DNA of 64,000 nt, taken from NCBI GenBank assembly GCA_000611775.1, contig KK106983.1:2104808-2168807 (forward strand). Direction: 5' to 3'. This stretch comes from Umbilicaria muhlenbergii (lineage: Eukaryota > Ascomycota > Lecanoromycetes > Umbilicariales > Umbilicariaceae). The position numbers and the translations under genes were made by a program. Numbering within the stretch: position 1 is the first letter of the stretch; each line of letters starts with the position of its first letter. The notes under the pieces were generated by a model. The model was not told the DNA's origin and did not search any database. It saw nothing but the letters and a program-made list of their open reading frames with translations. This document shows positions 7,148 through 47,690 of this stretch, one piece after another.

Positions 7148-10100
7148 ATGGATCCGTTTTCGATCATTGTTGGTACCACCAGCTTAATCGATATCTGCGT
7201 CCGCCTTGTCAAATATCTCAAAGATTTCCATGAGGCGGCGGCTAAGGTCGAGGCCCAAATATCAGCCCTACAGCATGAGATCGAGGCACTAATCGCGGTC
7301 AACAAGTCGATCCGTACTCTTTTCCAGGAAGAGCTGGAAAAGGCCAGGTTGAAGCCAGAGGAGCTGAAAGGTTCTTTGAAAGTGCTGGTAGAGGAAATAG
7401 ATCCCGTCCAGAATATTTGGCGGGACATTGGGAGGAATCTGAAAGACTGCGAAGCCGTGGTGAAGAAGTTGGAGGAAATTGTCGAAGAGATCGTCGGAAA
7501 GGAAAGGGTGGCAAAGGAAAGCCCAAAGATCGTTCAGAAATTCGAGGGTTACAGGAAGTCAAAGCGAAAGGAATCGAGAGATGGCGAGTTTAGGCAACTT
7601 CGAGATCAGCTTACCACCTTCCAACGCGCTCTTCAGATGCTGATGACAGCAATTACAACGTGAGCGCAACATCAATACCAGGTCTATGAGCAGTGTTAAT
7701 GTCGCTATAGATCCTATACACGCGGAATTCAGTCCACAGCAAACAAAACCAACCGATCCATTGATGAACTGTCCGGTAACGTACGGGCGCTTGATCTGAG
7801 CCTTCAAAATCAGATCGAATCTCTGAAACCCTTGATACAAGCCCCAGATGTCTATCATGTGAGTAAGTAGGAGTTCGACCTCTTGATGAATGCTGATTGT
7901 CAAAAGCTTCGTGCCTCTGTTCAGTCTGCAGCGGTAATAGCATCATTAACCTCTCCAAATAAGCACTTTGACATCCCGCAGACGGTCAGTAGTATATTCA
8001 CTGGTAGGGAATCATCATTGAAGGAATTGAAAAACACCCTCATCACTCCGCGGTCCCCAGGCCAAAGTCAAACACAGAAGCGTTTCATCATTTACGGGTT
8101 GGGGGGATCAGGGAAGACGCAATTCTGCTGTAAATTCGCTCAAGAGAACCGAATGAAGTGAGTTGACGTACTTCACAATGAGTTTGAAATTCGCGGTGTC
8201 TAATGACCGATGATAGCTTTTGGGCTATCTTTTGGATCGACGGAAGCTCTGAGGCGCAGGCAACGCAGACGTTCTCCAAAATCGCAAAGATCGGTGGAGT
8301 AGAACCTAACAAGGCCGCAGCGAAGAATTGGCTGTCAAACCTTGAAAGTCCGTGGCTGTTAATTATTGACAATGCAGACGATCCTCGTACGCCAATCGAT
8401 AGTTATTTCCCTGAAGGCGAAAGGGGCCATATCCTTGTGACAACACGAAACCCGGCCCTTCAGTTGCATGGAACAGTCGGGCAACGATCATTCCACTTTG
8501 AGCAATTGAAAGATGAAGAAGCCAACAACCTTCTTCTAAAAGCAGCCAACAAGCCTAGCCCGTGGGACGTGCGTACCCAAGAATTGGCAAGCGTCATCAC
8601 GAAGACGTTGGGATTCTTGCCTTTGGCTCTAGTTCATGCCGGCAGGGCTATCATGAACGGCTTTTGCACGCTAGGCACGTATATCGCCTCTTATGATATG
8701 AACTGGCAAAGGGTTCGCCGGTCTCGAGGATCCTTTAACCTTCACGAAGATGAGGAAAATATGTATCTGAACATCTATTCAAGCTACGAGGTAATTTACT
8801 TAGGGCTGGAGGGCAAAGATACCCAGGCGGCCAGGGATGCAATCGAGCTTTTGAAGACATTTTCTTTCTTTCACCGCGAGAACATCCGGGTTGATTTCTT
8901 CACGAGAGCTGCGTTGAATCCGGCAGCGGAACGAGAAGAAGAGGAGAAACAGAAACAGAAACAGAAAGACGCCAAAAGCAAAAGTATTCAGACGTTCAAA
9001 ACTTGGGCGCAAACTTTCGAGGAGATCAAACTCGCGCTACTGATCTTTCTGCTCAAGGATCGAAGTCCTTTGGTTCTGCCAAAAGTACTGCGCGATACAG
9101 AAGAGTTGGGATATTTCGACGACCATCGGCTGAGGATGGCATTGAAGGAGCTGACGCAGATGTCATTAATCACTTACAGTTATTCCACGGACAGTTATTC
9201 CATGCACCCACTCGTCCACACTTGGGTACGAGAGAGACCTAAAATGAGTACGCCCGAGCAAGCCATCTGGTGTCAAGCAGCAGCCACTGTCTTAGGGCAG
9301 TCTATTTTACTACCGCCACTTGGTTCATCCGAAGCCGACGAAGATCTGCGACGGGACCTTCTGCCGCACGTTGAGCACGTGCAGAGATGCCAAAAAGCCG
9401 TCTCAGAACAGATCATCGAGAAACGGAAGCAGCGTAAGAGGCCATGGCCCGTACTTGGCCCCAGATTCGGCCGGCCGGAAGCCCTTCGTTTGGCCAAATT
9501 CAGTCTGGTTTATGCGCAATGCGGCCACTGGGACGTGGCCGAGCAACTCCAACTCCAAGTAAAAGACTTCGTCTGCACCATGCTAGGACCCGAGCACCCC
9601 CGCGCCATGGACATCATGCTCGCCCTATCCGGCACCTACTGGCAGCTAGGCCGCGGCAACGAAGCCGCCGACTTACAAGCCAAAGTCTTGGCCATCTGCA
9701 AGAAGTCCCTCGGGGAAGACGACCCGAAGACCTTCCGAGTCATGGACACGCTGGGAGTCAGTCGCTGGCAACAAGGCCGCTTCACCGACGCGCTCGCCCT
9801 GCACGAACGCGCCATCGAAGGCCTCACCGCCCTGCTCGGCCCCTCCCACGAAGACACCCTCAAAGCGACCGCCCACCTCGGCCGCGTCCTCGACAAATTT
9901 TTCCGCTTCGACGCCGCCAAATCCCTCCACCTCGCCGCCGTCGCCGGCATGAAAACCACCCTCGGCCCCACCCACCTCGAAACCCTCATCGCAATGGACA
10001 ACCTCGCCATGACCTACCTCTCCCTCGGCGGCGACTACCTCCTCCCCGCCCAGGACCTCCTCCTGGAAGTCCTCGCCCAGCGCAAGAAGAAACTCGGAAA

Positions 10101-10602
10101 GGAACACCCCTACACCCTCTGGGCGATGTGCAACCTCGCGCGCGTCGAGACCGCCCTCGGGGATCTCGAACAGGCCGAAGACCGCATGCGCGCGGGGCTG
10201 GCCGTCGCCGAGCGGAATCTCGGCCCGGACCACATCGGCACGCTGTACGGGCAGGTGTATCTGGCGCAAGTGCTCGTGGCGCGCGAACACTACGAGGAGG
10301 CGGAGGCGATGTTTTTGCATGTGATGGAGCGGCATAAATACATGGCCGCCGCGAGTAATAGCCAGCATCCGGATCGGTTGAGCGCGATGTGGTATCTGCT
10401 GCAGTGTTATCGGGCGCAGAATCGGGTTGAGGAGGCGCTGAGGCTGTGTGCGGAGATTGCGGAGGGGTTGGTGGTGCTGGGTGCGGGGGATCATCCGTTG
10501 GCTAGGCAGGTGGAGGAGGTGCGGAAGGAGTTGGTGGGGTCGTCGGTCCGTCGGAGGGTTCCTGCCGTTGCGGTTTCTGATGCCGAGAGTATGCCGGCTT
10601 GA
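7148..10602 (+). CDS. NLR: HeLo-like N-domain, NB-ARC, TPR array
   Basis: Four exons, 7148-7659, 7711-7858, 7907-8157 and 8217-10602, give 1098 residues with all phases consistent. The N-terminus (MDPFSIIVGTTSLIDICVRL, then a long coiled coil) fits the fungal STAND N-terminal domain of the HeLo-like/PigL_N class, associated with membrane-targeting cell-death effectors. The NB-ARC module has P-loop GLGGSGKTQ (about 284-292), FWAIFWIDGS, Walker B PWLLIIDNADD (about 349-359), sensor ILVTTRN and a GLPL-like LGFLPLAL (about 445). TPR units fill about residues 735-1080. Its nearest relative in the window is the truncated NLR at 1-1783. The codon style changes inside exon 4: mixed third positions before about 9540, then almost entirely C-ending, then G-ending near the 3' end. 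The likely role is allorecognition or damage-triggered cell death, by family inference. Confidence 0.9.
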
Positions 10603-11561: not shown

Positions 11562-14530
11562 TCACTCATTGTGAACCGGAAATGGAAGCCTATTACCAAT
11601 CCAGGAAAAGATCATCGACTCGCATAGTATAATGAATAGGATAACGAGACCTACGACGACCTCGTTCATCGCTCGGTGCCAATATCGCCGAAGAGACGTA
11701 CACGCCACGAACCAGTACATGTCCACGAGTTCGACAAAGATATTCTTGTTGTGTCTTCGCGGATCAGGAACCCCGGCGAGATTGGCTAGTATAGAAAACT
11801 GTTTTGGAGACAGTGTCATCCAAAAGGCCCTTGGGCTGGCGCAGGTCCGCCAGTTGAGATCCACATCCGTTGTGTGCTCCATCATACGCAAATGTTGTGC
11901 TCGGATTGCTACTGGAACGGGGTGGAACCATCCATAGGACATCTGGCCCCGGGCAAGGCAATCCAGGTAATGTATTGAAGCCAGATCATATTCTTGAAGA
12001 CCATGGTAGAGGAAAGCAAGAGAGTATAGTGCCTTGATCACGAGAGTTTGATCGGGTGGGAGCTCTTGTTTTCGCATTTGGACAAGTCCCTTTGAATGGT
12101 ACAGAGCTTCCTCGTGGCGGCCCTGATCCCGCAGCGTTAACGAAAGCGTCTCCGTACTATACGCGACCCACCTGTTCCCCGGCCCATAGATTGCCGGTCT
12201 ATTCTTGAGACACCGCCTGACCAATGACTCTGCCTCTTCCGACTTCCCTCTTTTCTGGAGAATAAAACCTAACCTGATCTCCGCTAGGTACAGGCCAGTG
12301 TGATATACCGGAAGGATTCTCTGCATACCTTCGACCGCGCGCTTATTCACCTCCTCGCTTTCTTCGAGCTTACCGAGCCACTCCAGCGCGGATCCCAAGT
12401 AGCTTAAGCTCTTCAAGGTGTCCCAATGTTCTTCACCGAGAATCGCTTTTCTGCTGGTGTAAACACGACGGTATATTCGCTCCGCGGGCGCAAACTTCCC
12501 TTTAGACAAGAGATTCTCTGCAAGTTGAGCTAAGTGCTTCATCGTGTCTAGATCTTGCGGTCCATGCAGTTTCTCTATCCCCCTGGTAGCAATCCTAAGA
12601 AGTCGCTCACCCTTCGTAGGATCCCCGTGGTAGGTAAGAGTTAGACCCATATCGCTCATATTGTTGAGCGTCTCAAGATGGCGAGATCCACACTCCATCT
12701 CAAACACCTCAGCCGCCTCTTCATGCCTTTTCATAGCCAAATCGTACTGATCTTGTGCTCGTAGATAGTTCGCCATTTTCTGCTTAAGCCTTGCTTTCTG
12801 CAATGACATACTTGCAGATGAAGTATCGAATTGCTCTACGACGACGGCGTGCGGATAGATCTTCTTGCACTGGTCCCACTGTTGGCTCTCCCCGAATGGA
12901 AACGTGTCCGCCACCACCTGCAGGGCGACTTGTTCGTATGTGGCTCTCTGGCCACGGCTTTCAAGCCATTCCTGCGTTGCTAGGTGCACTAGGTCATGCA
13001 TTCTGTAATTCGTCTCTCGATCATCAGCATCTATCAGGGAGAATGCTTTCAGTATTCCAATAGCCTTGGTGAAGTCGAGTAATGATTCTCCGTCTTCGCG
13101 TAAAAGAGCACTGGGAACCGCGCCTGGACTCAACACTGCCATTGTGGATAAAAATGCTGCGGCGCGAGGTGACTGGTGCGCCAATTGTTCAAAGGAGATC
13201 TTCCAAGTTTCCAACACTGAATTCCTGCTTTCAACATCTCTCCGAGGGTCGGTAAGATCTTCCCCCAAGACGGCCCCCGTCCTTGAATTAGTACACCTGA
13301 ATATCTCATTATAGATGGACACCGATGTCTGGTTTTCACCGATGAAAGCTGCTGCCTGCGTGATTGCGAGCGGCAAGAACCCAAGCATGCTTACCAGAGC
13401 TTGTGCGTCGACTTCTGTCGAGCTAGATCCAGCACCCCGAGCTCGCAGGAGTTGTTTTGCGTCTTCATCACCCATTAGGGGGACCTCGATGGGTTGGGAT
13501 CCATTCAATAGCCGTCTTCCAAGCCTCTTGTCGCGTGTTGTAATAATAAGGGAGCCATGGGAAGTATGTGCAATCCGACGGAGCAAGATGGTAATCGGCT
13601 GGGGCTTCGTGCCTGGGATATCCGACTGAGATCCAAAGAAGACGCTCATATTGTCGGCACTGTCGACCACCAAGAGCCATGGCCCATGGTCCACGCTGAG
13701 GAGCCACTGACCCACAATCTGGTAAATGTCTGTAGACGGCTCGCTCCAGCCAGGCAAGGAAAGAGCCCGAGCGATGTTTCTGTATCCTTCATCTATTCGA
13801 GCGGTTGAACCTGCGTGAATCCAGAAGATATGGCGTTGAGGATGTTGAGCTTGGTATGAGTAACAATAGTGGATTGCTACTTGAGACTTTCTAAAGCACG
13901 ACGTCAAATGTTGATTCGTGGCGATGATGGGAGAATTGAGACTGACCCGACGCCTCCAATACCAGCAAGTGCCACGTTGCTTTCGTCATGGAACCGTTCT
14001 TGAATCGCCTTGAGTACGCCTGTACGTCCGATAAAGTTCGAGTCCTTCGGGAATGGAACCATAAACAATGCCTTTGAGGGCAGTCCAGCAGGCAATGCTG
14101 ACGAACTCGCCTGATGACATGTCAAGACCTGCAAGAATCTCTGCAAGGCGGATGCTATCACTTCTATTTTCTTCTCCTTCAAGACGCTTGAGACGGCCTT
14201 GGTGGTCTTTTTGAAGGGAGTGTCCGATGCTTGTGGCAGGAGGCCGGCCAGGATGTCCTCTAGCCGCTGTACCTCCTGGGTGCAGCCCTCTAGTAACGGT
14301 TGAAGGGCAACCTGCGTTTCGTGGTTGACTTCACCGAAATCGATCTGCTGTCGGGTTCTTCTTAGGATATCGAGGATCAAGGGTAGTGTTATCTGCACAT
14401 TTCTAAAGGCGGACGGGAGACTCTCCACGCTTGAGCTGAAGTGTTTCAATCGCTTGGCTATCCTGGAGCCATAATCAATAAGCTGTATGATAGAACTGGC
14501 CAAGCCGACGGAAAGCACAGCTTCTGCCAT
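11562..14530 (-). CDS. NLR: SesA-type N-domain, NB-ARC, TPR, C-terminal membrane segment
   Basis: Two exons, 14530-13947 and 13890-11562, give 970 residues. The 56-nt intron (GTCAGT...TTTAG) splits the P-loop codon and restores GIGGVGKSQ (about 190-198). The N-terminus (MAEAVLSVGLASSIIQLIDY) matches the SesA/NACHT_N class of fungal STAND N-domains, distinct from the N-domain of the NLR at 7148. Walker B is PWLLVVDSAD (about 265-274), followed by SLIITTRDKR and LGFLPLAITQ. TPR units span about 580-890. The last 40 residues hold a strongly hydrophobic stretch (VVVGLVILFIILCE, about 934-956) that looks like a transmembrane helix, which is unusual for an NLR. It is convergent with the previous NLR. 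Role: putative incompatibility or innate-immunity receptor. Confidence 0.88.
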
Positions 14531-16757: not shown

Positions 16758-18989
16758 TCAAGACACCGTCTTCCCCCCGCAATCCGGAATAAGCAACCCC
16801 GGCTTCAATTCACGCCCCGAATCCATCAACCCCCATTTATCCTCCCACTCCTTGCCCTGCTCATTGAACCGAATCTTCCACGGCTCATCGAACGCCTCGA
16901 ACCAGAAATACGCCGTGCCGTTCGCCAAAGCCTGGCATACAAAAGTGTCCATGAAGGTGTTCATCTCGTCGATGCCCGCAATACTCCCCTGCGTGTTGTT
17001 CGTACAAGTGGATGCCCCACAGTCGTTGCCACCGGTACTCGGCCAGCCGGTCTCGGATATCAGATTCTTCTTCCCAGTGCCCTGTGTGAGGACCACATCG
17101 TGCGTTTGCCAGAAATCCCACGTCCAAGCCGCAGCGTCAGCGGCTGCCACGCCGGCGAAGAAAGGATGGATATTGGACATGACGATGTCGACGTTTTCGG
17201 CAAGACTTGCGATCCAGTCATCTCCTAAATCTGATGTGGCGAGAGGCAGGTCAATCTTTTTGGCCGTAAGGTTCGATTTTACGTCGCCTAAGAGAGTCCC
17301 TAGGGCTTCCACGGTCAAATCTTTCCGAAAGAGAACTTCATTGCCGACGATGACACCAGCAAATGGTGCAGCCCCGTTCTTGTCAAGAAGGTCGTTCATA
17401 GCGCTGAGCTGGCGGTTGCTGGTTGTAGAGTTATTGTCGACCCATACGCCCAACCAGACCTTCATGTCGGTCAGGCCGAGGGCGTTGATAGCTTGCAAAA
17501 CCATTTCGGTCTGATTGCAATCAGTCCCATATAAGCGTACCGCATTGGTAAGCTGTGATAGGACCGCCATGTCGCGCGTAATATTGTTTTGACTCGGTGG
17601 GTTCGTGAGACATTCGGGGTATTGGGCGTTGAACGGGGTGTAATCAATTCCAGGAAAGACTTTGTGCAAGTCCTTATTTCCCATCAGTGCCTTGATCTCC
17701 GCCGAGTCTTTGTTCAACGGTGTGGCATCGTCTTGCGCTGCTGATTGTCCAGACCCGCCGGAAGAACTGCCACCATCGCTATCGCTACTCTTTGCTCCTC
17801 GAATACCACCGATGACTCCACCGACAATAGCAGCTATCACAACGAGAGCCATTATGATGCCAACTATCCACCTCAGTTTTCGTCTCCCAGAGGTCTGTTT
17901 GGTAAGCCAGCCGCTTTTCTCCACCCCGCCATCGCCGAAACCTTGGCCAGATACTGGTCCGTAGTTACCACTGGGACGGGCCCTCGGTCCCTGGCCAGCG
18001 ACCGACTTGCGGCCGATCAAACCTCCTATACCGCCGAGTAGGCCTCCTGCTGCCGCGCCACCAGCCGCAGCACCCCCCAAGCCACTATGATCCGAAGAAA
18101 TCCCGTGATTCAAACCAGATCTACTTCTTTGCATATCATGTGGGGTTAATCCATCATCTCCGTCGTCTTCGATATCATTTGGATCGATATCTCCTACCCT
18201 AGAGTCCCACGCGGTCGAATACCGTTTATATGGGCTGTCTGAATATGTCCTTTGAGCTCCCATGTATCTCTCTGGCGAGGGATAGTCTGCCAGTGGTATA
18301 TTTTCATCAGATGGGAGGGCTCGAGGCGTCTGTTGTCCAGGCGTCGCTGCCGCCGTTCCTAAGGCTGTCGTCGACGAGTATGATTCTCGATGCTGCATGC
18401 CCCTTGTACCCAGTGGTGGGGCAGGTATATATGGTGTATCCGAGCCTACGGAGTCGTATTCCCTCTCCAATGGAATGCCCGCCCGGTTGTACCGTATTGT
18501 CCCTAGACCATCGACGTCGCTGGGTCCTTCGTTCTCACTGGCAACTCCTAATGCTATACCCGCTATGCCACCCCCAGCGGCTGTCAGGCCTAAATTGTCC
18601 ATTCCAGGCGTCGTGGTAGACGTAGTTCGGTTCGATCCCGAATAGCCTAGACCTCGCCCCCTGTAACCACCGTTACCAGAAAGTGGTTTCCTTTGCGTTG
18701 ATGCGTGAGGTGGAGGAGGAGGAGGCTGTGAGTCGGAGGAGTCGGTTGGTTGAGGAAGTTGCGGATAGTCTAAGGGGAGATATCGAGACCCTGGTGGCGA
18801 TGGAGGAGAGACAGCGTATTCTCTAGGTGGAGGCGAGCCATATGTTTGGAGTGGAGACACCTGGTTGTCTCGGGAAGGGGCATCTCTGTAGAGTTGCGCA
18901 TAGTGGTCAGAGTACTCCTGCCTGTCGGAGCTCAAGGGGATTTCATCGCCATTGTCGAAAGAGAAAGTGCGGTTCTGTGATCGAGCCAT
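16758..18989 (-). CDS. btgC: Membrane-anchored endo-1,3-beta-glucanase, GH17 (btgC type)
   Basis: A single exon of 743 residues. The long, Ser/Pro/Gly-rich cytoplasmic N-terminus (about 1-370) leads to one transmembrane helix (RWIVGIIMALVVIAAIVGGV), so this is a type II membrane protein with an extracellular catalytic domain. The GH17 fold is recognisable: GIDYTPFNAQYPECL, AVRLYGTDCNQ, acid/base Glu in VGNEVLF (about residue 551), DIVMSNIHPFF and nucleophile Glu in ISETGWPST (about 646). It cleaves cell-wall beta-1,3-glucan during wall remodelling. The architecture matches Aspergillus BtgC. Start ATG 18989 is the first in frame and begins with a basic, hydrophilic segment. The repetitive glycine/alanine block before the membrane helix is low complexity. 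Confidence 0.93.
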   Translation of the reverse strand: MARSQNRTFSFDNGDEIPLSSDRQEYSDHYAQLYRDAPSRDNQVSPLQTYGSPPPREYAVSPPSPPGSRYLPLDYPQLPQPTDSSDSQPPPPPPHASTQRKPLSGNGGYRGRGLGYSGSNRTTSTTTPGMDNLGLTAAGGGIAGIALGVASENEGPSDVDGLGTIRYNRAGIPLEREYDSVGSDTPYIPAPPLGTRGMQHRESYSSTTALGTAAATPGQQTPRALPSDENIPLADYPSPERYMGAQRTYSDSPYKRYSTAWDSRVGDIDPNDIEDDGDDGLTPHDMQRSRSGLNHGISSDHSGLGGAAAGGAAAGGLLGGIGGLIGRKSVAGQGPRARPSGNYGPVSGQGFGDGGVEKSGWLTKQTSGRRKLRWIVGIIMALVVIAAIVGGVIGGIRGAKSSDSDGGSSSGGSGQSAAQDDATPLNKDSAEIKALMGNKDLHKVFPGIDYTPFNAQYPECLTNPPSQNNITRDMAVLSQLTNAVRLYGTDCNQTEMVLQAINALGLTDMKVWLGVWVDNNSTTSNRQLSAMNDLLDKNGAAPFAGVIVGNEVLFRKDLTVEALGTLLGDVKSNLTAKKIDLPLATSDLGDDWIASLAENVDIVMSNIHPFFAGVAAADAAAWTWDFWQTHDVVLTQGTGKKNLISETGWPSTGGNDCGASTCTNNTQGSIAGIDEMNTFMDTFVCQALANGTAYFWFEAFDEPWKIRFNEQGKEWEDKWGLMDSGRELKPGLLIPDCGGKTVS

Positions 18990-20763
18990 GGTAGATGTCG
19001 ACTTTTCAGAGAATAGGAGAGAAGATAAAGTGTTCGAGGTAAGGGTGGCAGGCTCATCGAGGTAGACGCCGTGTGTGACGAGGTGAGACAGGTACCGGGG
19101 GGCTGTGTATCCTACACGAGGATGTTGCCGTACTGATGGAGGCTCGTAATACGACTTGCATCGACCTTCACTTTTCTATTGCCACGTTTCTGTTTTCTGG
19201 ATGTGTTGAGACTAGACGTACAGCTATGGCTCGACTACATTTCCAGCGCGGTCCTGCTTCCTCCTCAGGCGAGGTCCTCGCTGTTCGCCTGCTGCTTCGG
19301 CTTGTTTGGATGGGGCAGGCGCACCACAGCAACCATGAAAGAAGCCTATATATAGAACACCAGGATTTTCAATCTCTCTCCACCACACCATTGTTCCCTG
19401 CGGCTGGGCGGCGCGCTTACTCCGCCTGAACCGGCGTGGCGGTACCAGTAGACATCTGTCAATTCCAAGCCTCGTTTGTTGTCTTTAGCACAACCTCTAC
19501 CATCCATTTCCATTTCAACATCCAATTCAACATCATATCCGGTGGAATTGGAGCGAACCGGAGAGGATCGCCAGGCGTGCCATTTAATCTACTGGCGATC
19601 TGAAACAGAACCATCAGGGACATCCTCGGCAGCCCACCAATGGCGAAAAGTGCATTATCAGTGGATACCATTCAGAATTGCATTGATAGAATGCAGTCTT
19701 TTCCACTTCTAGTACCTACATACTTGATCTTCTCCAATGCTTTCTTCTCCCTTTCGGGGTGTTGAGTGCGCCTCCTTGTCCGAGGATTGTCTGATTGTGC
19801 GTCTACCGCTGACCTTATTTGCGCAATTACTACCTCTGACTCGAACTGCTTGCTGCTGCTTGACTGCTTATCGCCTGGAAGGAAAACCTTCGCGCTCTTC
19901 GATAGCCACAGCCAGGACCCCAGCGGCTTCGTCATATCACCCGTTGTGCCCAAGGTAAGGCCTATGGCGTGGTCTGGAGCAGATATGCGAGGATAGGTCT
20001 GAATGCTACCGTACATTCTCTTGGACAGGATTAGCATCTATATAGACGCCGGAAACTGGTTGTTCTTAGACAGGACCGCCCCAGCATCATAGTACGCGCT
20101 TGCTATAGTGTCCATTTCACGACCAGTCAGATTGGCGCCGTGGGAAAAGCTGTGGGAAAAGCTGTGGTGCAGATGCCCAAGTAGACAGCCACGAAGAGCG
20201 TACTCCCGAAAAAGTCCTGTTCGCTATGATATCATTTATTGAGCGGGAAGTGGCTCCCCTCTACCTAGTCGGAGAGCCCGCATGATATAAGTGTGAACAG
20301 CTAACCAAGGCAATTGCCACTGACAAGAAGTGGATACATTAGGACCCTCATGCAAGCTCAATGGCAAGTTCGATGCAAGGCGTCCACTTGTGGCAGATAT
20401 CATGGTTACAAGGAACAGCAATCAAAACACAGCAGGATATCCTACCTTGTATAGCCTATAGGTGATGGATAGAGGTCCAAGAAGCCGAGATCGTCTGATC
20501 CGCATCTTCCAACGAGCCATTGCGAAGTTAGTGAACTCAAGCCTATGGCTGCACTGGGTGAATTCTGGACTTCTGGCAGCATTAGCCATAATCTTACCTG
20601 TGTAGCAACGGTTGGGAGCCCCTACACCAAGCCGAGGACGATTGTCTTCACATGGAGTGCGGGACTAGCTCAGCATGAATTAACATTATATTGACAGATA
20701 AGCTCGAGTAGGCATACACGCATGCTTGCAGTCAATCAAAAGGAACTCTCAAGACGCCCCTCC
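18990..20763. other. intergenic, no gene seen
   Basis: Promoter side of btgC. Frames on both strands are short, mostly without an ATG start, and match nothing I know. A direct repeat of GGGAAAAGCTGTGG near 20150 is the only local structure noted. Confidence 0.5.
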
Positions 20764-23860: not shown

Positions 23861-23949
23861 CATGGCTATAAAAACCGGAGCATGCCCCAGGGGAAATTGA
23901 TCTTTAGAAAAACATTCATTCGAGAAGAGCGCCTGGTGGTTATATCGAA

Positions 23950-23989
23950 CACACATACATACATACACACACACACACATACACACACA

Positions 23990-24032
<43 letters not shown>
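23950..24032. repeat. (CA)n microsatellite with CATA interruptions
   Basis: About 80 bp of nearly pure ACACAC with a few ATAC units. Confidence 0.95.
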
Positions 24033-25204: not shown

Positions 25205-25858
25205 TTAGAGCCTGGATCCATGGATGACCTTGTAATCGACAGCCAGCTCACGCCCACCATCATTGATAACCAAGACACGAACGCTGCCTCTGCCATTGGC
25301 AAAAGATTCATTGAGTCTCGACCACAGTCTACCTTGATCAATGACTGGCAGACCCTGCTTGACCTCACCCGACTCGGTCATAGCGACAACACGACCATCG
25401 TCACGGATATCCAGAACACGGTACTGCTTGAAGACCGGGCCGAGCATGTTCTGGACGATCACAGAAGGTTGAGGGTTAGATACGAAGCTCGACTCTTCAT
25501 GAAGCTGCTTGGTGAAAAGGTCGACGCCAAGATAGCGGTGCTGACCAGTCTGCGCTGAGGTAGTGATACGGATGACCTGGCACGGGCGACCCTGAAGGAC
25601 CAAGAGATCGCCGACGCGGATGTGGTGGCAAGGGATAGTGATGGTATTGGGAGTAACACCACGCTCAACGAAGCGGACGCTCTCACGCACACCATCGCGG
25701 ATGCGGGTTGGGCCACGGTCTTCCTCGCGATCGATGATGATTTCTTCACGGTCGGTGTGGTGATGGTGGGGGTGGAAGGGATGCATAACACGGTCGGCGG
25801 CGCGCTCAAGGCCGCGACGGAAGGAGTGGTAGTGACCTTCGTCGTCGTAGTAACCCAT
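25205..25858 (-). CDS. hex1: HEX-1, Woronin-body core protein
   Basis: Single coding exon from ATG 25858 to TAA 25205, 217 residues. It begins MGYYDDEGHYHSFRRG, with a His-rich linker. The eIF5A-like core follows: TPNTITIPCHHIRVGD, LVLQGRPCQVIR, TSAQTGQHRYLGVDLFTKQL, MLGPVFKQYRVLDIRDDGRV. It ends in the peroxisomal targeting signal SRL. The protein self-assembles into the crystalline core of Woronin bodies, peroxisome-derived organelles that plug septal pores after wounding; it is diagnostic of Pezizomycotina. This ATG is the conserved start in the family and the first ATG on this strand for more than 1.2 kb. The frame stays open upstream and is spliced (next entry), so an N-terminally extended isoform is possible. 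Confidence 0.96.
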   Translation of the reverse strand: MGYYDDEGHYHSFRRGLERAADRVMHPFHPHHHHTDREEIIIDREEDRGPTRIRDGVRESVRFVERGVTPNTITIPCHHIRVGDLLVLQGRPCQVIRITTSAQTGQHRYLGVDLFTKQLHEESSFVSNPQPSVIVQNMLGPVFKQYRVLDIRDDGRVVAMTESGEVKQGLPVIDQGRLWSRLNESFANGRGSVRVLVINDGGRELAVDYKVIHGSRL

Positions 25859-27078
25859 GTCTCGTTTCGGGGGGTCGACGGTTGTTTCTGATTCGATTCT
25901 TACTTGATCACGAGGGCCGGTGCGGACACGCTCGTATTCGACGTCGTAGGTAGGTTGGAAACGTTGACGGTAGTCACGTTCGGCGGAGTCGATTCCTGCG
26001 GTTTGACGATCGACCTCGATGTCAACCTTGGTTTCTGGGTAACGTTGGTAGGGTTCTCGGTATCTGCGATGCAAGAATCGTGTTAGTTGATGACCGGATC
26101 GATTTCGAAAGTAGAGATCTGCTACTGAAGGCAAGGGAGGACGGATTTTAGGTGAATTGCTTTCGGGGTGCAAATGAAAGTGTTGTGTTGGAGGAGTGTT
26201 TTGCCAGTGCAGGGACTAGCGAACGGATCACTGACCGTTCTCTGGAAAGCTCAACCTCTGCGAAGCGTTCTGGGCGTTCTTCTTCGTAGACTGTAACGTC
26301 TTCCCTGCGGCGCGGACGGTTGGTACGGTCGCCTTCGCGGATGTTGATCTCTTCCTCGTCGTAGCGAATTTGATCTCGACGACGGCCGGGAAGAGTGGCG
26401 GAGAACGAAGAGAAGCGAGTTTCGTGACCTTCCCGTCCGACGCGCGAAGCTCCTGAAGGAAGGTTGACCTCTCCTTCTACTCGGGTGCGAGTAGTCTCGA
26501 TGGCAGCGTCGCTCCGGTACGACGACGGGAAGACGCTGAAGGGGATCGGGACTTTGCCGTCAAAGTCCAGATTGACGACCTTGAAGGCGTCTCTTCTCGA
26601 ATGCCTTTCGAACCGTTAAGCTAACAATTCGAAAGGAAGACAAGAAAAGACTTCTTGCTTCTAGGGGTTTGGAGAGGGGTGTGGGGAAAAGGGTGAGAGA
26701 AGCAGGCGAAGATTGACGAGTTGGCAGGAACACGCTCTCTAAGTAGGTATCTTGAAGCTCCGGCGTTTCAGTTGGGTAATGGGTACCTTAACGGTCTTCG
26801 ATGGATGTCAATGCAGAGGCTGTGCGGGGTTTGGAAGCTTATGCAAGATGGTGGATCTTAGGTTGGCTGCGGATAATGTTCGACGATGGGAATGGAAGGA
26901 GAGACGGAGGAGAGTTGAGGAATGTGGAGGTGACTGGCCAAGCGAGTGTGAAGGGGAAGATTAATAAATCGCGTTGTGTACGAGCTAGCGACCCCGGCGG
27001 AAAAAGGAGGTGTCCAGGGCAACGTAGCGCCAAGCGATGATTCGTCCTGGACGCAACAGTTCGTCTTCGAATGCGAGC
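25859..27078 (-). other. ATG-free hex1 leader with in-frame upstream coding extension
   Basis: On the minus strand there is no ATG in any frame from 27078 to 25859, where about 19 would be expected by chance. Within it an intron (26235-26064, GTCAGT...CGCAG, CTAAC branch) joins two open blocks, about 26605-26236 and 26063-25859, in frame with HEX-1. The encoded stretch is charged and Tyr/Arg/Glu-rich (VTVYEEERPERFAEVEL, YREPYQRYPETKVDIEV), has protein-like codon bias and contains no Met. A further acceptor lies just after the branch-like CTTAAC near 26615, so a non-coding first exon upstream is likely. Translation of the block would need a near-cognate start or a remote ATG exon. Confidence 0.7.
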
Positions 27079-30005
27079 ATTGATGTTGGAGAGGTGATGA
27101 TTAACAGCTGTTGATGGTACCCACGGTGGACTACGGAATACGGAATACGGAATACGGAATACTGCTTTGTACTTACTCGTAGTAATCCTACCTACGGAGC
27201 GTACTGCGCATCGCATGGTCGCGATTCAAACCAATGGTCCCTTTGGGCAGCATGGAGCCAGGCTGCAATGCAAAGCTCCCTGTCTCACTCACTGTCCGGC
27301 TTTACTATGTATGCTTGCTGCAAGCCATCGAATCTTCCTGATGGCTGATGCCGTGGCCTTGAACACTTGTGGCCGACTCTTTGACCATTTTCGTGGTCCC
27401 GCGCGATTGGCGTAAGCTCTCCACTTGACGCGTCCTATCAGGAAGGGCAGACATAGCCGACCAAGTCTTGGGCCGGGCTTCAGCAGTCCCGCCGCTGCAT
27501 GAGCAAGATGCCTAGGGCAGACGTTCAGCCACCGGGAGGGCAGTTATATTTCAAAGTGGGTTATTGGCCACAGCCAACACCCCCGCTGCGTTACTTGCCT
27601 ACCGTATGTTGCGTGGCGTGCGTGGCTTTACGCAGAATGTGGGAGTCGGGCAATCACCTCGCCTGCTGGACGAATTGCAGGGCCCCGAGTCGGCAGCGTG
27701 CCGTGACTCGTGGGATCCTCTTTTGATTTCATTTCCAAAACGAGGACCTCCTCAAGCTCAGCTTCACATGTCAAGGCTCAATCGCATCACCTTGGCCGCA
27801 TGTGGAAGGCTTCCCAGCTGCCCAATCGATGCAGCCGCCTAGGGTTTGCGTTTGGCCCTATCACAAGATCTTCAACTGTCGGCAGGCGGGCCGCTCTGAC
27901 GCAATGCTACGAGTGGTCCTAAAGTACTACTAGCTTGCAATGCGCTCAATTGTATCACTTCATCTTCCACCTTCGTTTGGAAGATTGCTAGAAGAAGTTT
28001 TCCAAAGAGGCTTGAGGATGAAGGAGTACGTGGTTAGAGCCAAGGCCGAGATACTGACTGTCCGTAGAGAGGAGCCGAGCAGCATGCGCCCTTGGACTGA
28101 GGAGACTTGAAGTCTACGCTTCAGCGCCAGTGCTGTAAGCACAAACACCCTTCAAGGATGAATGCGACTCCCTCCCTCGAGGATACCTGCGAGGCGACTC
28201 TTGACGACATTCCGAGCAGGCACTACTAGCGAGGTTTCTTCGCACCTACTGTCCCAGCGACGCTCATACAGGGGACGATGTGATTGTGTCATTCAACACT
28301 CCTCGAATGGTTACACGGCTCGAAGTGAGGCCCACACTGGGGCGTAGCGGGGCGGGAGCTCTTCAGTGTTTCATCCGCCGTACAACCGTTGACGCATTGT
28401 TGCCGCAAGGCTTCGAAGGAACAGAAAACAATCACACCCGTACACGGTTGGGCAACGGTCTCAGAACTGGCGACAAAGGCCGCTCTGATGCCGAAAGAGT
28501 CTCAGTGCATGTTTGCGGCCCACGAGATACAGTATGTTAGCTCCACTATGTTCACGGCTGCAGTGGCTCCTGTACGGTGTCAAACGGGCTCCGAATAGAA
28601 ATGAGTAGTGCCCGGCCGCAGAGTGTGTTGCTTTCAAGGTCCTATTTTCGGTTGGTGCAAAGGTCGACATGAGCCCGGCAGACGATATCAGAATCTGGAA
28701 GATGGTTATGTCTTGTGGCGGCAGCTGACTTCAACGTTCCCTTAACCCCTCAAGCATGAAGCTTTGCTCTCACATATGGTAGGGTTCACAAGCTGCGATG
28801 CATACGGGGAGTTGATTGAGGACCGGCCACTTGGTCCATGTTGTATGCGTAGCGACAGTATCTGAATCATCAAGGTTGCCACCCTAGAAGCGTGGGTTTG
28901 CAGCTGGAGTCTCACATGAATCAAGCAGGACCCAGAATCCCTGCTGGCTGTGCCGGAAGCCGTGCTACCGTTGACTGTATGTGGCCCGAATGAAGGGCAG
29001 TCTGGTGAATGAGCGCGTAGGCTTCAGGATGTCGAAAGTGGCAGCGGAGATGGGGCGTACTGGACGTGCAAGGTAGCACTCCGTGATACGTTGATCTCAC
29101 TGACATGGGGGGTCGCTCCGCATTCCGTATGGTCCAGCAGATCTCATGCAGTAGAATAGGATTTCTTTAGAGTTGCGACAAGTCTACTCTACCATCATGC
29201 GCATTCACCGCCGCCATTCGCCCATCCGAGACTCCGGTGGCCAGGCCCGGGTCGATGTAGCGGCAGAGGTACAGGCAGCGGTCGATGTAGATATAGTCGA
29301 GGTCTGTCAGCACCATCAGCTCTGTAGCACGTCCACTCCGTCCACTCCGTCCCTCCGTCGTGCCTCAGTTTGGAGGTTTGCAAGAGGGGTGCATGACTAA
29401 GTGAGCACGTAAGCCTCCTCGCTCCTCAGCCCATTCGCAGCTTAGCCGTCTTGGCCTCTTCCGCCCGGTCGCACAACGTTTTTCGCTGCAAATCCGCGTC
29501 ATCCTCGTCCTCGTCCTCATCCTTATCCTCGTTCGACAACTCAGCCCCAGCACCAGCACGACGCAACCACCAATAACCAAAACCGAAAACTGAACCGGCA
29601 CCCACAACAGTGCTCCTAACTATCTGCGACTGAGCATTTTCCTTCTCGCAGGACCCACGGTGCTTGTACTTTGGCAGCCGAAAGACAACCGGCGTTCTCC
29701 GTTGCCTGGTTGCCTCAGTTCTGCTCGCATTCCTCGACCTGAGGACGAACACCACCCTCGAAGAGTGTTACATCCCACTTGGTCACGACTGAACACGCTC
29801 AGTAAACACACAGACGGCGTTGGAAAGGTAAAGAAAACTCTCGTTTTCTCAGCACGGGCGCTCCGTTGCTGACGTTGCGGCTAATTCAGCTCGTCTGTGC
29901 CGCCAGTAATCCTTCCTACCTCTCATCCATTCCACACTCCAAACATTCATACATTCGCATACACACCCTTCACAACTCCAGTTCGGACAGCGCTGCCGAA
30001 ACACA
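27079..30005. other. divergent intergenic (hex1 / DUF8035-type gene)
   Basis: About 3 kb with no gene I can support. Four tandem copies of a 7-bp unit (ACGGAAT) lie near 27132-27160 and a CCACTCCGT repeat near 29334. A minus-strand frame at 29426-29755 has an acidic tail but no ATG, so it is not called. Confidence 0.5.
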
Positions 30006-32231
30006 ATGGAGGCGCGCTACGCACGTCCTTCATCTCCGACCAGCCGTCGCCTGGCGCATGGCTCGAGTGCGAGAACGTCGACTGGTACCATTGGCTACCC
30101 CTCCAGCTACGATGGATACTACGGGCCCCGATCAAGTAGGGATGTCCTTCCTGGTCCTAGATCAAGTGGCGAGCGAGTAGTCGCACCAAGACTCGCAACC
30201 AGGAATTACGTGGATGACACTGTACCGTCCAGAGCATTCCGTGACGACTACGGGATCCGTCCGCGACGTGCCACACTCGAGACGGACCCTTTAGCAGCAA
30301 GAAGGCCTTTGACCATTAACACGAGCTCGTCGAATCGTCCACGACCTCTAGTTACGAGTGCCGTCGACAGGCCTCCAAGTCCAATGTCAAAGATTTATAG
30401 ACCGCGCGGAGACGAGGGGTATTATCTCCAACCTGCGTCCTCGTCTTCGAGGAGAGAGCATCACCGCAACTATAGCGCCGGTAATGAAGACATGGCTCGA
30501 TTGACTACTGGAGCTCCCGCGCCGAGGGACAGAACGGACCGTGGTTATATAAGAGCCGGCTCTGGTCGTGAACGACGAGGCCATAATTACGAGGCACCTC
30601 CGAGAAGTATATTAGATGATGACGACGGCGGATACGAGTATACAGACCGAAGGGAGCAGATGTACAGAGATACAGCACCGAAACCACGGCCAAGAGGTGA
30701 TAGCTACAGTGGAGGAAGGCGGCCCTTGAGTATGACTGGAATGGAAGACTATTTACCAAGGGCACCAGCCACAAGAGACGGCCGTCCTCCAGTCACGAAT
30801 CGAGGTTTTGATAAAATTGGGCAAATCGAAAGCTCACGCCAAGGGACACGATATAACGACGTGCGCGCACCGGATTACACGAGCGATCGTGGAGAAGCGT
30901 ACGAGGTGCCGCGTCATCGTCCATCTACTCGGAAAGATGTCGCTATCCACCAGGAACCAGAAGAGGCTTACAAGCCATATCGTGACGGCTACGATGATGG
31001 TTACGACAAGCGACCCCGTGAAATCCGGAAGAACGCTGTCGTCGAAGGCGACGTGGACCCCCGCGCATATAGCAAACGCGAAGAGCCGAGGAAACAAGAA
31101 TACGATGACGCTCAGACGGACCGAGTTGCCGAGGACAAGTCCAGAAGGCATCGCAAGCACCGGCATAGACATAGCGACGACGACGCGGACAAAGACCGAA
31201 AGGACCGAGGCGATCCTCCCAAAGACAAGCACGATCGGGGCGAAGAGCTACTTGCCGGCGGGTTGGCTACTGCAGGTGTCGCTGGTATTGCAGCGGAGGG
31301 TTTGAAACACAGACACCGTCATGATAGAGACCCTCGTGGTCCAGACGGTAGAGAGCCAATTTTATCAGACAGGACGGTGATCGATCGGGACAATGATCGT
31401 GGTGCACCTACAAGCCGAGATCCTGTTGACGCTCGAAACATTAACGACGATCAGAGCGAAGTAGAGAGGCGGGAACGTCGCGCGCGGCGCAGAGAGAGGC
31501 GGCGCTTGGAGCAAGAAGCTCATGATCAGGAGGAGCTGGAAGCTCGAGCGAGAAACGCCGAAAGACCTCGTGATAACCCTGAGCCTCCACGTCTCAATAT
31601 GGAACCTCCGCGTGTCAACATGGAGCCTCCCCGTATCAATATGGAACCTCCCCGGGTCAGCATGGATCCTCGGGTCAACATGGATCCTCGTGTCAACATG
31701 GAGCCTCCCCGCACCAACATGGACCCCCCACTGATGGAAAGCGCCCTCCAGAAGCAACACTCCTACGAACGCTCCAGCCCGCCCCAACCCCTCGAACCCC
31801 CACACCACCACCGCCCCCGCCAAGACCCCATGCCCGTGCGCGAGGGCGTAGCCCCGCTGAAAGACGCTGGCAAGAAGGGGATTCCGCCGAATGCGCGGTG
31901 GACGAAGATCAACCGTGAGTTGGTTAATCCGGAAGCGCTGGAGGAGGGAAATGAGAGGTTTGAGCAGAGGGTGGATTATGTGATTGTGTTGAGGGTGCTC
32001 ACGAAGGAGGAGATTCAGGAGTATGCTAGGAGGACGCAGGTGATTAGGGGGGAGAGGACGAGGGTGGGTGTGGGTGTGGGGCAAGGGCAGGTGGCTGGAG
32101 GGATGGGAGCAGTGGGGCAAGGGGGGGTGGGAGGGGCCGGGATGGGACATGGGCAGGCGCAGGGACATGGGGTTGGGGGAGTCGGACCGTTGGCATTGGG
32201 GCAGGGGGGTTTGGGGAGTGTGAGCCATTAG
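30006..32231 (+). CDS. Large disordered protein with C-terminal DUF8035-type domain
   Basis: Single exon, 741 residues, ATG to TAG. Almost entirely low complexity: Arg/Asp/Tyr-rich N-terminal half, RHRKHRHRHSDDD and KHRHRHDRD basic-acidic tracts flanking a small Gly/Ala hydrophobic patch (LLAGGLATAGVAGIAAEG), then an ERRERRARRRERRRLEQEA helix and tandem NMEPPRV repeats. The only folded-looking part is near the C-terminus (PPNARWTKINRELVNPEAL ... VDYVIVLRVLTKEEIQEYA), which I believe is the fungal domain catalogued as DUF8035; its function is unknown. A Gly/Gln-rich tail follows. Such disordered proteins often sit at septal pores or in condensates. The hex1 gene is its divergent neighbour, but a joint role is inference only. 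Confidence 0.8.
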   Translation: MEARYARPSSPTSRRLAHGSSARTSTGTIGYPSSYDGYYGPRSSRDVLPGPRSSGERVVAPRLATRNYVDDTVPSRAFRDDYGIRPRRATLETDPLAARRPLTINTSSSNRPRPLVTSAVDRPPSPMSKIYRPRGDEGYYLQPASSSSRREHHRNYSAGNEDMARLTTGAPAPRDRTDRGYIRAGSGRERRGHNYEAPPRSILDDDDGGYEYTDRREQMYRDTAPKPRPRGDSYSGGRRPLSMTGMEDYLPRAPATRDGRPPVTNRGFDKIGQIESSRQGTRYNDVRAPDYTSDRGEAYEVPRHRPSTRKDVAIHQEPEEAYKPYRDGYDDGYDKRPREIRKNAVVEGDVDPRAYSKREEPRKQEYDDAQTDRVAEDKSRRHRKHRHRHSDDDADKDRKDRGDPPKDKHDRGEELLAGGLATAGVAGIAAEGLKHRHRHDRDPRGPDGREPILSDRTVIDRDNDRGAPTSRDPVDARNINDDQSEVERRERRARRRERRRLEQEAHDQEELEARARNAERPRDNPEPPRLNMEPPRVNMEPPRINMEPPRVSMDPRVNMDPRVNMEPPRTNMDPPLMESALQKQHSYERSSPPQPLEPPHHHRPRQDPMPVREGVAPLKDAGKKGIPPNARWTKINRELVNPEALEEGNERFEQRVDYVIVLRVLTKEEIQEYARRTQVIRGERTRVGVGVGQGQVAGGMGAVGQGGVGGAGMGHGQAQGHGVGGVGPLALGQGGLGSVSH
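31588..31732 (+). repeat. coding minisatellite (PPRVNME units)
   Basis: About eight tandem 18-21-nt units encoding PPR(V/I/L/T)NME or MDPRVN inside the preceding gene. A candidate length-variable site. Confidence 0.85.
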
Positions 32232-40835: not shown

Positions 40836-41473
40836 AAATGCCTAAAATGACCCCCCTCAACTTGTAAATTCCCTGAATAACCCCCAAAACTTCATAATTC
40901 CTCGTTTGACCCTCAGCCTTCTATAGAGGTGCTTTCAGGCTGTATCTCATGCATTTGTTTGTATGACTCAGGTTGTTTAAACAGGGTATGAACTGACTCT
41001 GATCTACAGTCTACTTGTCACACTGAATCGCCTGCCTCTTTTCTTTGTGATGCTCTTAATAGGTTCAGTAATCGTGCCTTATCAACTAAAATTCAGCACT
41101 CTCGGTTGAGTTTTTGGCTATAAACTTAACTAAACCTTTAATCATGCCCCGCAGAGCCCGCCCACTAATAATCCTTCTAACAAGTGAACAATTATTAGTA
41201 GGCGGGCTCACGGGCAGGTGGGGCATGATTACCTACAATGAACATCATAAGTATGCAACAACACAAAAGCTTTCTACACTCACTTTTGACTCAGTCTCTG
41301 AGAAACAAGTCTTGAAAGAGAGTGAAACACTGTCATCAATTTGTCCCCTGATGTTAACTTACAGTGCAGACGTTTCTATACTTCAATATTTGTAGGGGGT
41401 TAAACGAGGAATTATGAAGTTTTGGGGGTTATTCTGGGAATTTACAAGTTGAGGGGGGTCATTTTAGGCATTT
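40836..41473. mobile_element. 638-bp inverted-repeat (MITE-like) DNA element
   Basis: Terminal inverted repeats of 77 bp (40836-40912 and 41397-41473), differing at only two positions, start AAATGCCTAAAATGACCC. The interior has no transposase-like frame, so it is non-autonomous. I could not define a clear target-site duplication. The near-identical ends suggest a fairly recent insertion or maintained ends. Confidence 0.85.
41141..41229. mobile_element. 89-bp TA-flanked palindromic element nested in the MITE
   Basis: Begins ATCATGCCCC and ends GGGGCATGAT, with longer imperfect arms (GAGCCCGCC(C/T)ACTAATAAT). It is flanked on both sides by TA, the target duplication of Tc1/mariner-type transposons. 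It would fold into a hairpin of about 35 bp with an 18-nt loop. Confidence 0.75.
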
Positions 41474-46800: not shown

Positions 46801-47317
46801 GATGAAGTTGGGTAATGAAGACATTCGCAGTGAAGATGAAGATAACTGACAGGGCGATAAGCAAAGGGTAGCATGGGACGTTAGAAGTCCGTGGTGTAGT
46901 ACATGGAGATCCTCAAGCGCGTTCCCAGCTCGAAGGTTCAAGTGACTGGGGAGGGCCTCGTCCTTTTTGCAAGGGGACAATGCTCGCGATACAGTAGTGT
47001 CTCGGTAGGAAAGCATACCATGTATGGCAGGCTGGGCACCAGTGGCCAACCTTATTACCAGAAGAAGTGATGGTGCGACGGGGAAGCTGCTGGCGACGGC
47101 AGGCAGCAAGACAACGCGACAGCGATTATTGGAGGAGGGTGACGATATGATATGCAAGAGTCCCTCCGGATGCAAGAACAAGAACTGGCTTCTGATGGTA
47201 CAAAAGGGTAAGGATGTAAGGATGTATGGATGCGGTACTCACAGGATCGCCCGCCACAGGCGCCGGCTCTTCCTTATAGCCTCCAGGACCGGGGCCTAAG
47301 TCTGGATGATGTGCCAT
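43854..47317 (-). CDS. Gln/Pro-rich putative transcriptional regulator, DUF8032-type
   Basis: Five exons: 47317-47243, 46431-46134, 46052-44973, 44781-44086 and 43999-43854. The total of 2295 nt gives 764 residues with all phases consistent. The first exon encodes only MAHHPDLGPGPGGYKEEPAP and five more residues, then an 811-nt intron follows, long for this genome. Exons 2-3 are Gln/Pro/His-rich low complexity, then a conserved Cys-containing domain (VQWIAFEYSRDRVKMEYTI, NCVYPRACCNKEQYRGNRL, CLRGKRGLIQRAVDSWRNS) ending in a basic RLRSRRVRRMAKINNRKAV stretch that looks like a nuclear signal. I believe it is the domain catalogued as DUF8032. A second half-domain (VMLDQVEMKEIPDSYRKTN, EIVLNDLGYRMSWSQ) and a basic C-terminus (KRKWLERSRKSKRANTP) complete it. 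Nuclear regulator by composition; function unknown. Confidence 0.82.
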
Positions 47318-47637
47318 TGCGCGCTGCCTCTTCGGTAACGTTGGCGAGCTCTTAGCAGGACGTTGCTACTTGCCAGCAGCGAAGCAGCTAAACAGGCAGA
47401 CAGGGCTTCTGAAGCAAGCGGAGGGTGTCCGTGCAACCCTCGCGACTTGCTGCGAAGAGAACGCTTGACAGCTAAATGACAGCTAACAGCGTCGAGCCGG
47501 TAGGCGTGAAAAACACCCCGGCCGTCGAGTCCCAAGTGCCCAAGTCCCTTTTCCCTTTTCGCGTTATTAATAACAGAGCTTTTTTCGATACTTTGAAACA
47601 GCCCGACGAACCACAAGTAATTGCGACAGTGAGCAGG

Positions 47638-47690
47638 TGCTGCGCTGCGTGCTGTGCTGCGAGCTGCGTGCTGCGTGCTGCGTGCACCAC
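47638..47690. repeat. GCTGCGTG-like microsatellite
   Basis: Imperfect TGCTGCG(T/A)GC units; CTCTGC(C/T)TTTGC hexamers follow at about 47753-47790. Confidence 0.7.

What the first reader, a model, noticed from the sequence alone, without database searches (positions are those of the whole stretch)
25859..27078. 1.2 kb without a single ATG upstream of hex1, on the hex1 strand, in all three frames
Direct reading finds no CAT on the plus strand from 25859 to 27078, so no ATG on the hex1 strand. At ordinary composition about 19 would be expected. The absence stops at the conserved HEX-1 start and continues through exon-like, intron-like and promoter-proximal sequence. This looks like selection to keep scanning ribosomes from starting before residue 1 of HEX-1, or for a leader translated from non-AUG codons. 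I do not know of a description of this.
Basis: seen in the sequence. Interest (0 to 1): 0.8.

Follow-up and report, generated by a model that had tools for sequence, protein, structure and literature searches.

The report
AUG-free N-terminal extension of HEX-1
The 1.2 kb without a start codon before the gene for the fungal wound-plug protein HEX-1 is real, and about half of it looks like hidden protein code joined in frame to HEX-1, perhaps read from a non-standard start codon beside a strong RNA hairpin, which could explain why HEX-1 is annotated in two very different lengths.

Summary
Observation confirmed: no ATG lies on the hex1 strand between 27077 and the HEX-1 ATG at 25858, the longest ATG-free run on either strand of the window; the opposite strand there has 19 ATGs. 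The stretch is a mosaic. Positions 26615-25859 hold a two-exon open frame of 195 codons, joined in frame to HEX-1 across a predicted 172-nt intron, with HEX-1-like codon statistics, no Met, and no out-of-frame ATG where synonymous draws predict about five. A TAA closes it upstream. Its only in-frame CTG (26570) has A-3 and G+4 and lies 13 nt behind a -34 kcal/mol hairpin that fits the published description of the fungal "hexA motif". Upstream of 26619 the absence is only marginally significant. Best reading: an AUG-less N-terminal extension started at CUG, with leaky scanning to the usual AUG, giving long and short HEX-1. Main rival: an upstream AUG exon spliced in; at least one workable model exists. 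No relatives were reachable, so conservation, transcript ends and translation are untested. The parts have precedents; nine paper searches found none that joins them.

The parts
25205..25858 (-). HEX-1 core ORF (217 aa, starts MGYYDDEG, ends in the PTS1 tripeptide SRL)
   Evidence: phmmer against PDB HEX chains from MGYY onward, 8qlu_A E 4e-103; Pfam IF5A-like_N and eIF-5a
25856..25858 (-). HEX-1 AUG, context GAC ATG G (G at -3, G at +4)
25859..26063 (-). extension exon 2 (predicted), open and in frame with the HEX-1 AUG, no ATG in any frame
26064..26235 (-). predicted 172-nt intron inside the extension: GTCAGT donor, CTAAC branch-like site, CAG acceptor
   Evidence: coding score falls off here and resumes in a new frame after it
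26236..26615 (-). extension exon 1 (predicted), open from the codon after TAA; coding score begins at about 26600
26568..26570 (-). candidate CUG start: first in-frame near-cognate (AAG and AGG not counted) and only in-frame CTG of 195 codons, A at -3 and G at +4; gives a 180-aa extension
   Evidence: 107 of 2188 CTGs in the window have this context
26545..26572 (-). small hairpin around the CUG (8-bp central stem, 4-nt loop, -12.8 kcal/mol in a 38-nt fold); seen in 3 of the 4 folds, replaced by other pairs in the longest
26584..26656 (-). long hairpin (15-bp apical stem with 3-nt loop, 4x4 and 2x2 internal loops, -33.9 kcal/mol), fits the description of the hexA motif
   Evidence: description in PMC5640933 section 11
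26616..26618 (-). in-frame TAA that closes the extension frame upstream, at the hairpin apex
26619..27077 (-). presumed leader and promoter, CT-rich, no ATG (marginal on its own), no clear coding score
27171..27176 (-). GTAAGT donor-like site after an ATG at 27216; together with GTGGGT at 27124 the anchor of the rival spliced-AUG models

Best explanation
The hex1 mRNA carries an in-frame, AUG-less N-terminal extension. Scanning ribosomes that pass the leader hairpin meet one CUG in optimal context (26570). A minority start there and make a long HEX-1 (180 + 217 aa, reading through the spliced junction 26236/26063); the majority scan on through AUG-free sequence to the usual AUG (25858) and make the short, crystal-forming HEX-1. 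AUG is kept out of all three frames because an in-frame AUG would shorten the extension and an out-of-frame AUG would divert ribosomes from the main start. Shown here: the open frame (given the predicted intron), coding statistics, no Met, no ATG at synonymous opportunities, the CUG and its context, the predicted hairpin. Inferred: that the mRNA starts upstream of 26570, that the intron is removed, that CUG is used, that two isoforms exist. The role of the long isoform is a guess: a charged, probably disordered tail that limits or tethers HEX assemblies.
For: The frame is open for 195 codons between TAA (26616-26618) and the HEX-1 AUG once a predicted 172-nt intron is removed; 12 of 1000 dinucleotide shuffles of the spliced stretch were stop-free. 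Its mean codon log-odds (0.137) is close to that of the HEX-1 core (0.159; 0.131 with the stop codon counted) and above all of 1000 shuffles. In sliding windows the predicted frame turns positive just past the hairpin, falls off in the intron and resumes in the HEX-1 frame. 0 Met in 195 codons; five other ORFs have 1.9-2.7 per 100. Synonymous draws at the usage of six window ORFs predict 5.2 ATGs; 0 seen (1 of 1000 draws); the core has 11 against 9.6. NAY codons before G end in T in 0 of 11 cases, against 8 of 12 in the core (P 0.0013) and 82 of 156 in other ORFs (P 0.0007). 107 of 2188 CTGs in the window (4.9%) have A-3 and G+4. Literature: Pezizomycotina cpc-1 has conserved non-AUG N-terminal extensions (PMC5487733, passages). 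Of 460 GenBank Hex1 proteins 235 are 405-534 aa and 64 are 145-209 aa (PMC7559983, passages); the form predicted here has 397 aa, just below the long class.
Against: No relative could be fetched, so conservation and dN/dS are untested. With the extension's own codons permuted only 1.6 ATGs are expected, P 0.11; the NAY test within the extension gives P 0.13. So part of the signal is that the extension uses few T-ending codons and little TG. The codon table does not tell strands apart: an antisense frame scores as high in exon 1 (0.139 against 0.111) and higher in the core (0.231), each with one stop; one sliding window (26465) favours another frame. Four of the eight in-frame ATC/ATT codons also have a purine at -3 and G at +4, one of them A-3/G+4 (25897), so CUG is not the only possible start. 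A -34 kcal/mol hairpin ahead of the CUG should hinder scanning if it lies in the mRNA. A spliced AUG model with a CAG acceptor exists. PMC7762394 (passages) warns that predicted Hex1 N-terminal extensions may be annotation errors. P. oryzae is annotated with 439- and 417-aa forms (PMC8475275, passages), presumably from AUG.
Confidence: 0.46

Rival explanations
1. The extension is real but starts at an ordinary AUG in an upstream exon. A long intron joins it, and the hairpin may hide or expose a splice site. The unspliced or internally started transcript, free of AUG, makes short HEX-1.
For: Of 46 single-intron models listed (ATGs 27079-28300, donor score at least 1.5 on recalled weights), 9 end in a CAG or TAG acceptor. 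The best-placed is ATG 27216, donor GTGGGT 27124, CAG acceptor at 26535 with a TTGAC branch-like site, intron 589 nt; its donor scores above that of the extension's own intron (2.37 against 1.64) and it drops only 35 nt of the frame after the CUG. A perfect GTAAGT lies at 27176. Li and Breaker noted that one arm of the hexA hairpin resembles a 3' splice site and suggested splicing control (PMC5640933 section 11); here the left arm is a pyrimidine-rich tract with TAG at the apex. 235 of 460 GenBank Hex1 models are long.
Against: The GTAAGT donor pairs in phase only with GAG or AAG acceptors, or with TAG 26476 and CAG 26452, which would discard coding-like 26570-26453. The apical TAG leads into TAA in the extension frame. 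Introns of 590-720 nt are long for these fungi (recalled), and their lack of ATG would need another reason.
Confidence: 0.29
2. The upstream frame is not translated. The long leader is simply purged of AUG so that ribosomes reach the HEX-1 AUG of an abundant protein.
For: A second upstream region of the window (46.1-51 kb, minus strand, before the ORF at 44953-46095) is also ATG-poor on the sense strand: 33 CAT against 98 ATG in 46000-51000, so leaders may be purged here. The segment 26619-27077 has no clear coding score yet no ATG.
Against: It does not explain codon-like statistics in a frame that a predicted intron restores and that runs into HEX-1. Transcript leaders in Neurospora are described as long and AUG-rich (PMC7049704, passages), so purging is not the rule in filamentous ascomycetes.
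Confidence: 0.16
3. Composition and chance: a C-rich strand poor in T, G and TG has few ATGs.
For: With local dinucleotides kept, only 5.0 ATGs are expected in the whole stretch and each segment alone is near chance.
Against: The whole is still rare (1 of 1000 shuffles), exceeds all 100 simulated windows, and part of it shows coding structure.
Confidence: 0.08

Closest known systems
Non-AUG N-terminal extension of cpc-1/CPC1 in Pezizomycotina (PMC5487733, passages)
   Same: Long upstream frame continuous with the main ORF; near-cognate codons (ACG, AUU, CUG) in optimal or near-optimal context; about 180 aa there, 180 aa here.
   Different: cpc-1 has AUG uORFs and multi-species and experimental proof; here the stretch is AUG-free, interrupted by a predicted intron, and rests on a single sequence.
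hexA motif of Li and Breaker 2017 (PMC5640933, section 11)
   Same: Long hairpin with two small internal loops in the putative 5' UTR or intron of hex genes, followed by a long unstructured tail with codon-like variation.
   Different: They proposed splicing control and in that section do not describe an AUG-less extension; the match is by description only, since figure and alignment were not seen, and Rfam 15 gives no hit.
Long Hex1 gene models in GenBank (PMC7559983; P. oryzae 439/417 aa in PMC8475275; passages)
   Same: Same gene, extension of similar size.
   Different: Those are annotations, doubted by PMC7762394; here a mechanism for a long form without AUG is proposed.
Alternative splicing of the conserved hex1 intron (V. 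dahliae 188/209 aa, PMC7762394, passages)
   Same: Two HEX isoforms that differ near the N-terminus.
   Different: There both isoforms keep the MGYYDD start; here the core is an uninterrupted ORF and the predicted intron lies upstream of the AUG.

Membership tests
HEX-1 Woronin body protein | MGYYDD start, eIF5A-like domains, PTS1 tripeptide at the C-terminus | tested here: met
non-AUG-initiated N-terminal extension (cpc-1 type) | open frame upstream, continuous with the main AUG | tested here: met
   (after removal of the predicted intron)
non-AUG-initiated N-terminal extension (cpc-1 type) | no in-frame AUG in the extension; near-cognate codon in optimal context | tested here: met
non-AUG-initiated N-terminal extension (cpc-1 type) | coding signature in the extension | tested here: met
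   on a single sequence; an antisense frame scores as high in exon 1
non-AUG-initiated N-terminal extension (cpc-1 type) | purifying selection in frame and conservation of the near-cognate codon between species | not testable with these tools
   no relative found in genome contigs (2 scans), viral contigs (2 scans), plasmids or phages
non-AUG-initiated N-terminal extension (cpc-1 type) | initiation shown by reporter, toeprint, footprints or peptides | not testable with these tools
   needs experiment or public reads
[quoted passage not shown]
   2x2 and 4x4 internal loops; 0 of 200 shuffles of 26560-26680 fold as well
hexA RNA motif | in the putative 5' UTR or intron of a hex gene, followed by a codon-like tail | tested here: met
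   same strand as hex1 (the paper reports both orientations)
hexA RNA motif | right shoulder of the hairpin resembles a 3' splice site | tested here: inconclusive
   the right arm offers AAG and GAG only; TAG behind a pyrimidine tract lies at the end of the left arm and apex
hexA RNA motif | consensus sequence and covariation | not testable with these tools
   figure and supplement not seen; no Rfam match at E up to 5

The most novel reading that the evidence does not exclude
The hexA hairpin and the AUG-free extension are one device kept across Pezizomycotina: the structure directs a share of ribosomes to start at the CUG just behind it (by pausing, or by a shunt-like landing), so that every hex1 mRNA yields a long HEX-1 in a fixed or regulated ratio to the crystal-forming short HEX-1. 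This ratio would set nucleation, size or tethering of Woronin bodies, and the long and short Hex1 classes in GenBank would be two products of one gene rather than mis-annotation.
Probability: 0.16. Interest if true: 0.82.

Novelty: new variant of a known kind. Interest (0 to 1): 0.6.

Why it matters
[quoted passage not shown] crassa and A. nidulans forms are 176 and 221 aa (PMC7559983, passages). An AUG-less extension would make both correct, would give a meaning to the codon-like tail of an orphan RNA motif (PMC5640933), and would add a structural protein to the fungal genes with long non-AUG extensions. Gene finders that demand AUG would have to add upstream exons to reach it, so the reading is directly testable with existing RNA-seq, ribosome profiling and proteomics of laboratory fungi.

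Tried and rejected
Relatives: HEX-1 core as single query and as a 3-row alignment against genome contigs and viral contigs, tblastn against plasmids and phages: no relative. The window's own genome is not held. Metagenome scans were not used, the cap being 0. Rfam and tRNA scans were empty. A bacterial promoter/terminator scan is not informative for a fungus.

Considered and downgraded: that the entire 1.2 kb is under one selection (segments upstream and in the intron are near chance); that 19-21 ATGs should be expected (5-13 under local composition); that acceptor 26452 or 26476 starts the extension (it would delete coding-like 26570-26453); that the hairpin is the strongest of the window (it is 43rd of 12,786 overlapping 76-nt windows by raw energy). 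On recheck I found a spliced model with a CAG acceptor at 26535 that my first listing (best 40 of 46 rows shown) had not displayed; I lowered the best explanation from a drafted 0.50 to 0.46, raised that rival from 0.25 to 0.29, and shifted the two smaller rivals and the novel case by 0.01 to match. Splice models with more than one intron, or with ATGs above 28300, were not tried.

Papers opened by passages without direct bearing: PMC3713238, PMC3338822, PMC2690989, PMC3640049 (a 2,225-nt assembled Hex1 transcript of B. sorghicola is listed), PMC12077801, PMC6794485, PMC9882315, PMC7289440. Searches behind "no paper joins these parts"; I saw capped listings, and the library lacks most subscription papers, among them the M. 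grisea and A. fumigatus Hex papers, so a report there may have been missed.

Full report
WHAT WAS CHECKED. The window is from a filamentous ascomycete of unknown species (Woronin bodies and Hex1 are specific to Pezizomycotina, PMC7559983 abstract as shown). The gene on the minus strand at 25858-25205 is HEX-1: it matches PDB HEX chains from the first residue (8qlu_A, E 4e-103), carries the eIF5A-like domains and ends in SRL. No ATG lies on this strand between the HEX-1 ATG and position 27078. The gap of 1222 is the longest on either strand (next 784 and 613) and exceeds the longest gap in each of 100 first-order Markov windows (maximum 704). The opposite strand of the same bases has 19 ATGs. 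How surprising it is depends on the null: 21 expected at the window rate, 13 by composition, 5.0 by local dinucleotides (1 of 1000 shuffles with none).

THE STRETCH IS A MOSAIC. Translation in three frames shows one frame open from 26615 to 26236 and another from 26063 to the HEX-1 ATG. A predicted 172-nt intron (GTCAGT, CTAAC, CAG) joins them into one frame of 195 codons that runs into MGYYDDEG. An in-frame TAA at 26618-26616 closes it upstream. In a sliding codon score (90-nt windows) values upstream lie between -0.42 and 0.14 in all frames; the predicted frame is at 0.11 to 0.47 from 26600 to 26285, falls below zero across the intron, and the HEX-1 frame is at 0.29 to 0.56 from 26060 on; one window (26465) favours another frame. 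The mean log-odds of the extension is 0.137, that of the core 0.159 (0.131 with its stop counted), and none of 1000 shuffles reached the extension's value; 12 of 1000 shuffles were stop-free. Result against: the table does not tell strands apart, since an antisense frame with one stop scores 0.139 in exon 1 (sense 0.111) and 0.231 in the core. The training set was small: five other ORFs of this window, all with Pfam matches, plus the core.

ATG IS ABSENT WITHIN THE CODE. The extension has no Met in 195 codons. Drawing synonymous codons at the usage of six window ORFs predicts 5.2 ATGs and 22.4 TGs; 0 and 8 are seen (1 and 0 of 1000 draws as low). The HEX-1 core, treated alike, has 11 ATGs for 9.6 expected, and five other ORFs have 14-27 out-of-frame ATGs against 11.7-26.3 expected, none notably depleted. 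Where a NAY codon is followed by G, T would create ATG: T is used in 0 of 11 cases in the extension, 8 of 12 in the core and 82 of 156 elsewhere (Fisher P 0.0013 and 0.0007). Results against: if the extension's own codons are merely permuted, 1.6 ATGs are expected and P is 0.11, and within the extension NAY codons before G (0 T of 11) do not differ from the others (5 T of 19) at P 0.13. The avoidance is thus partly a general shortage of T-ending codons and of TG in this stretch.

A START CANDIDATE AND A HAIRPIN. Among the 195 codons there is one in-frame CTG (26570), the first near-cognate codon (AAG and AGG not counted). The others are eight ATC/ATT, four of them with a purine at -3 and G at +4, so CUG is the leading but not the only candidate. 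Its context is A at -3 and G at +4, which 107 of 2188 CTGs in the window have. Thirteen bases upstream ends a hairpin (26656-26584) of -33.9 kcal/mol with a 15-bp apical stem and 4x4 and 2x2 internal loops (0 of 200 shuffles of 26560-26680 fold as well, z -4.6). The CUG sits at the foot of a second, small hairpin in 3 of 4 folds. [quoted passage not shown] They took this as a sign of coding and suggested splicing control, while noting that at least seven examples lay opposite to the Woronin gene. The present locus fits that description, and its tail would be the extension. Identity of the motif is by description only.

MECHANISM. I favour an AUG-less N-terminal extension started at the CUG, with leaky scanning to the HEX-1 AUG. 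Pezizomycotina cpc-1 is the precedent (PMC5487733, passages): conserved upstream frame, near-cognate ACG, AUU and CUG codons in optimal or near-optimal context, about 180 aa. The predicted long HEX-1 of 397 aa lies just below the large classes of long Hex1 entries (112 of 460 at 405-469 aa, 123 of 460 at 470-534 aa, 64 of 460 at 145-209 aa; PMC7559983, passages), whose authors left the mature length open and which PMC7762394 (passages) suspects of mis-annotation. The main rival is an upstream AUG exon. Of 46 single-intron models, 9 use a CAG or TAG acceptor. Eight of these would discard coding-like sequence downstream of the CUG (26570 to about 26477 or 26453); the ninth (ATG 27216, GTGGGT 27124, CAG before 26535, 589 nt) drops only the first 35 nt from the CUG on and cannot be excluded. 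The hairpin's left arm is a pyrimidine-rich tract with TAG at the apex, so a splice-control role of the hairpin, or a 5' UTR intron, is possible too. A stable hairpin in the mRNA should slow scanning; this is the weakest point of the favoured reading unless the hairpin is bypassed, removed or upstream of the main transcript start.

LIMITS. No homologous locus was reachable, the genome is not held, and no reads are available. Conservation, transcript ends, splicing and translation are untested. The extension's function is unknown; from the CUG it is 41% charged without Cys, Trp or Met and probably disordered (inference). Nine paper searches (capped listings) showed no description of an AUG-less HEX-1 extension, within a library that lacks most subscription papers.

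Noticed in passing
46096-51000, minus strand: A second ATG-poor region on one strand (33 CAT against 98 ATG in 46000-51000; gaps of 784, 556, 421 and 402) lies upstream of an ORF at 44953-46095 (380 aa, no Pfam match at E up to 1, rich in Gln and Pro); it may be another long leader poor in AUG.
   Followed up: partly
41141-41230: The lowest-energy 76-nt fold of the window (-49 kcal/mol), with a 24-nt inverted repeat, 88% complementary, 8-nt spacer.
   Followed up: no
27128-27162: Five head-to-tail copies of a 7-base unit (ATTCCGT on the hex1 strand) just upstream of the ATG-free stretch.
   Followed up: no
23949-24031: AC/GT array downstream of hex1, 20.8 copies of a 4-base unit.
   Followed up: no
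8188-10602 (+) and 11562-13985 (-): Two convergent ORFs of 804 and 807 codons, both rich in TPR repeats, the first with a sub-threshold DUF7779 match, recalled as a feature of fungal NLR-like proteins.
   Followed up: no
16758-19175 (-) and 56585-58693 (-): An ORF with a glycosyl hydrolase family 17 match and an ORF with AAA_11/AAA_12 matches.
   Followed up: no
31581-31723: Imperfect 18- to 42-base tandem repeats inside the 773-codon plus-strand ORF 29910-32231, which has no Pfam match at E up to 1.
   Followed up: no
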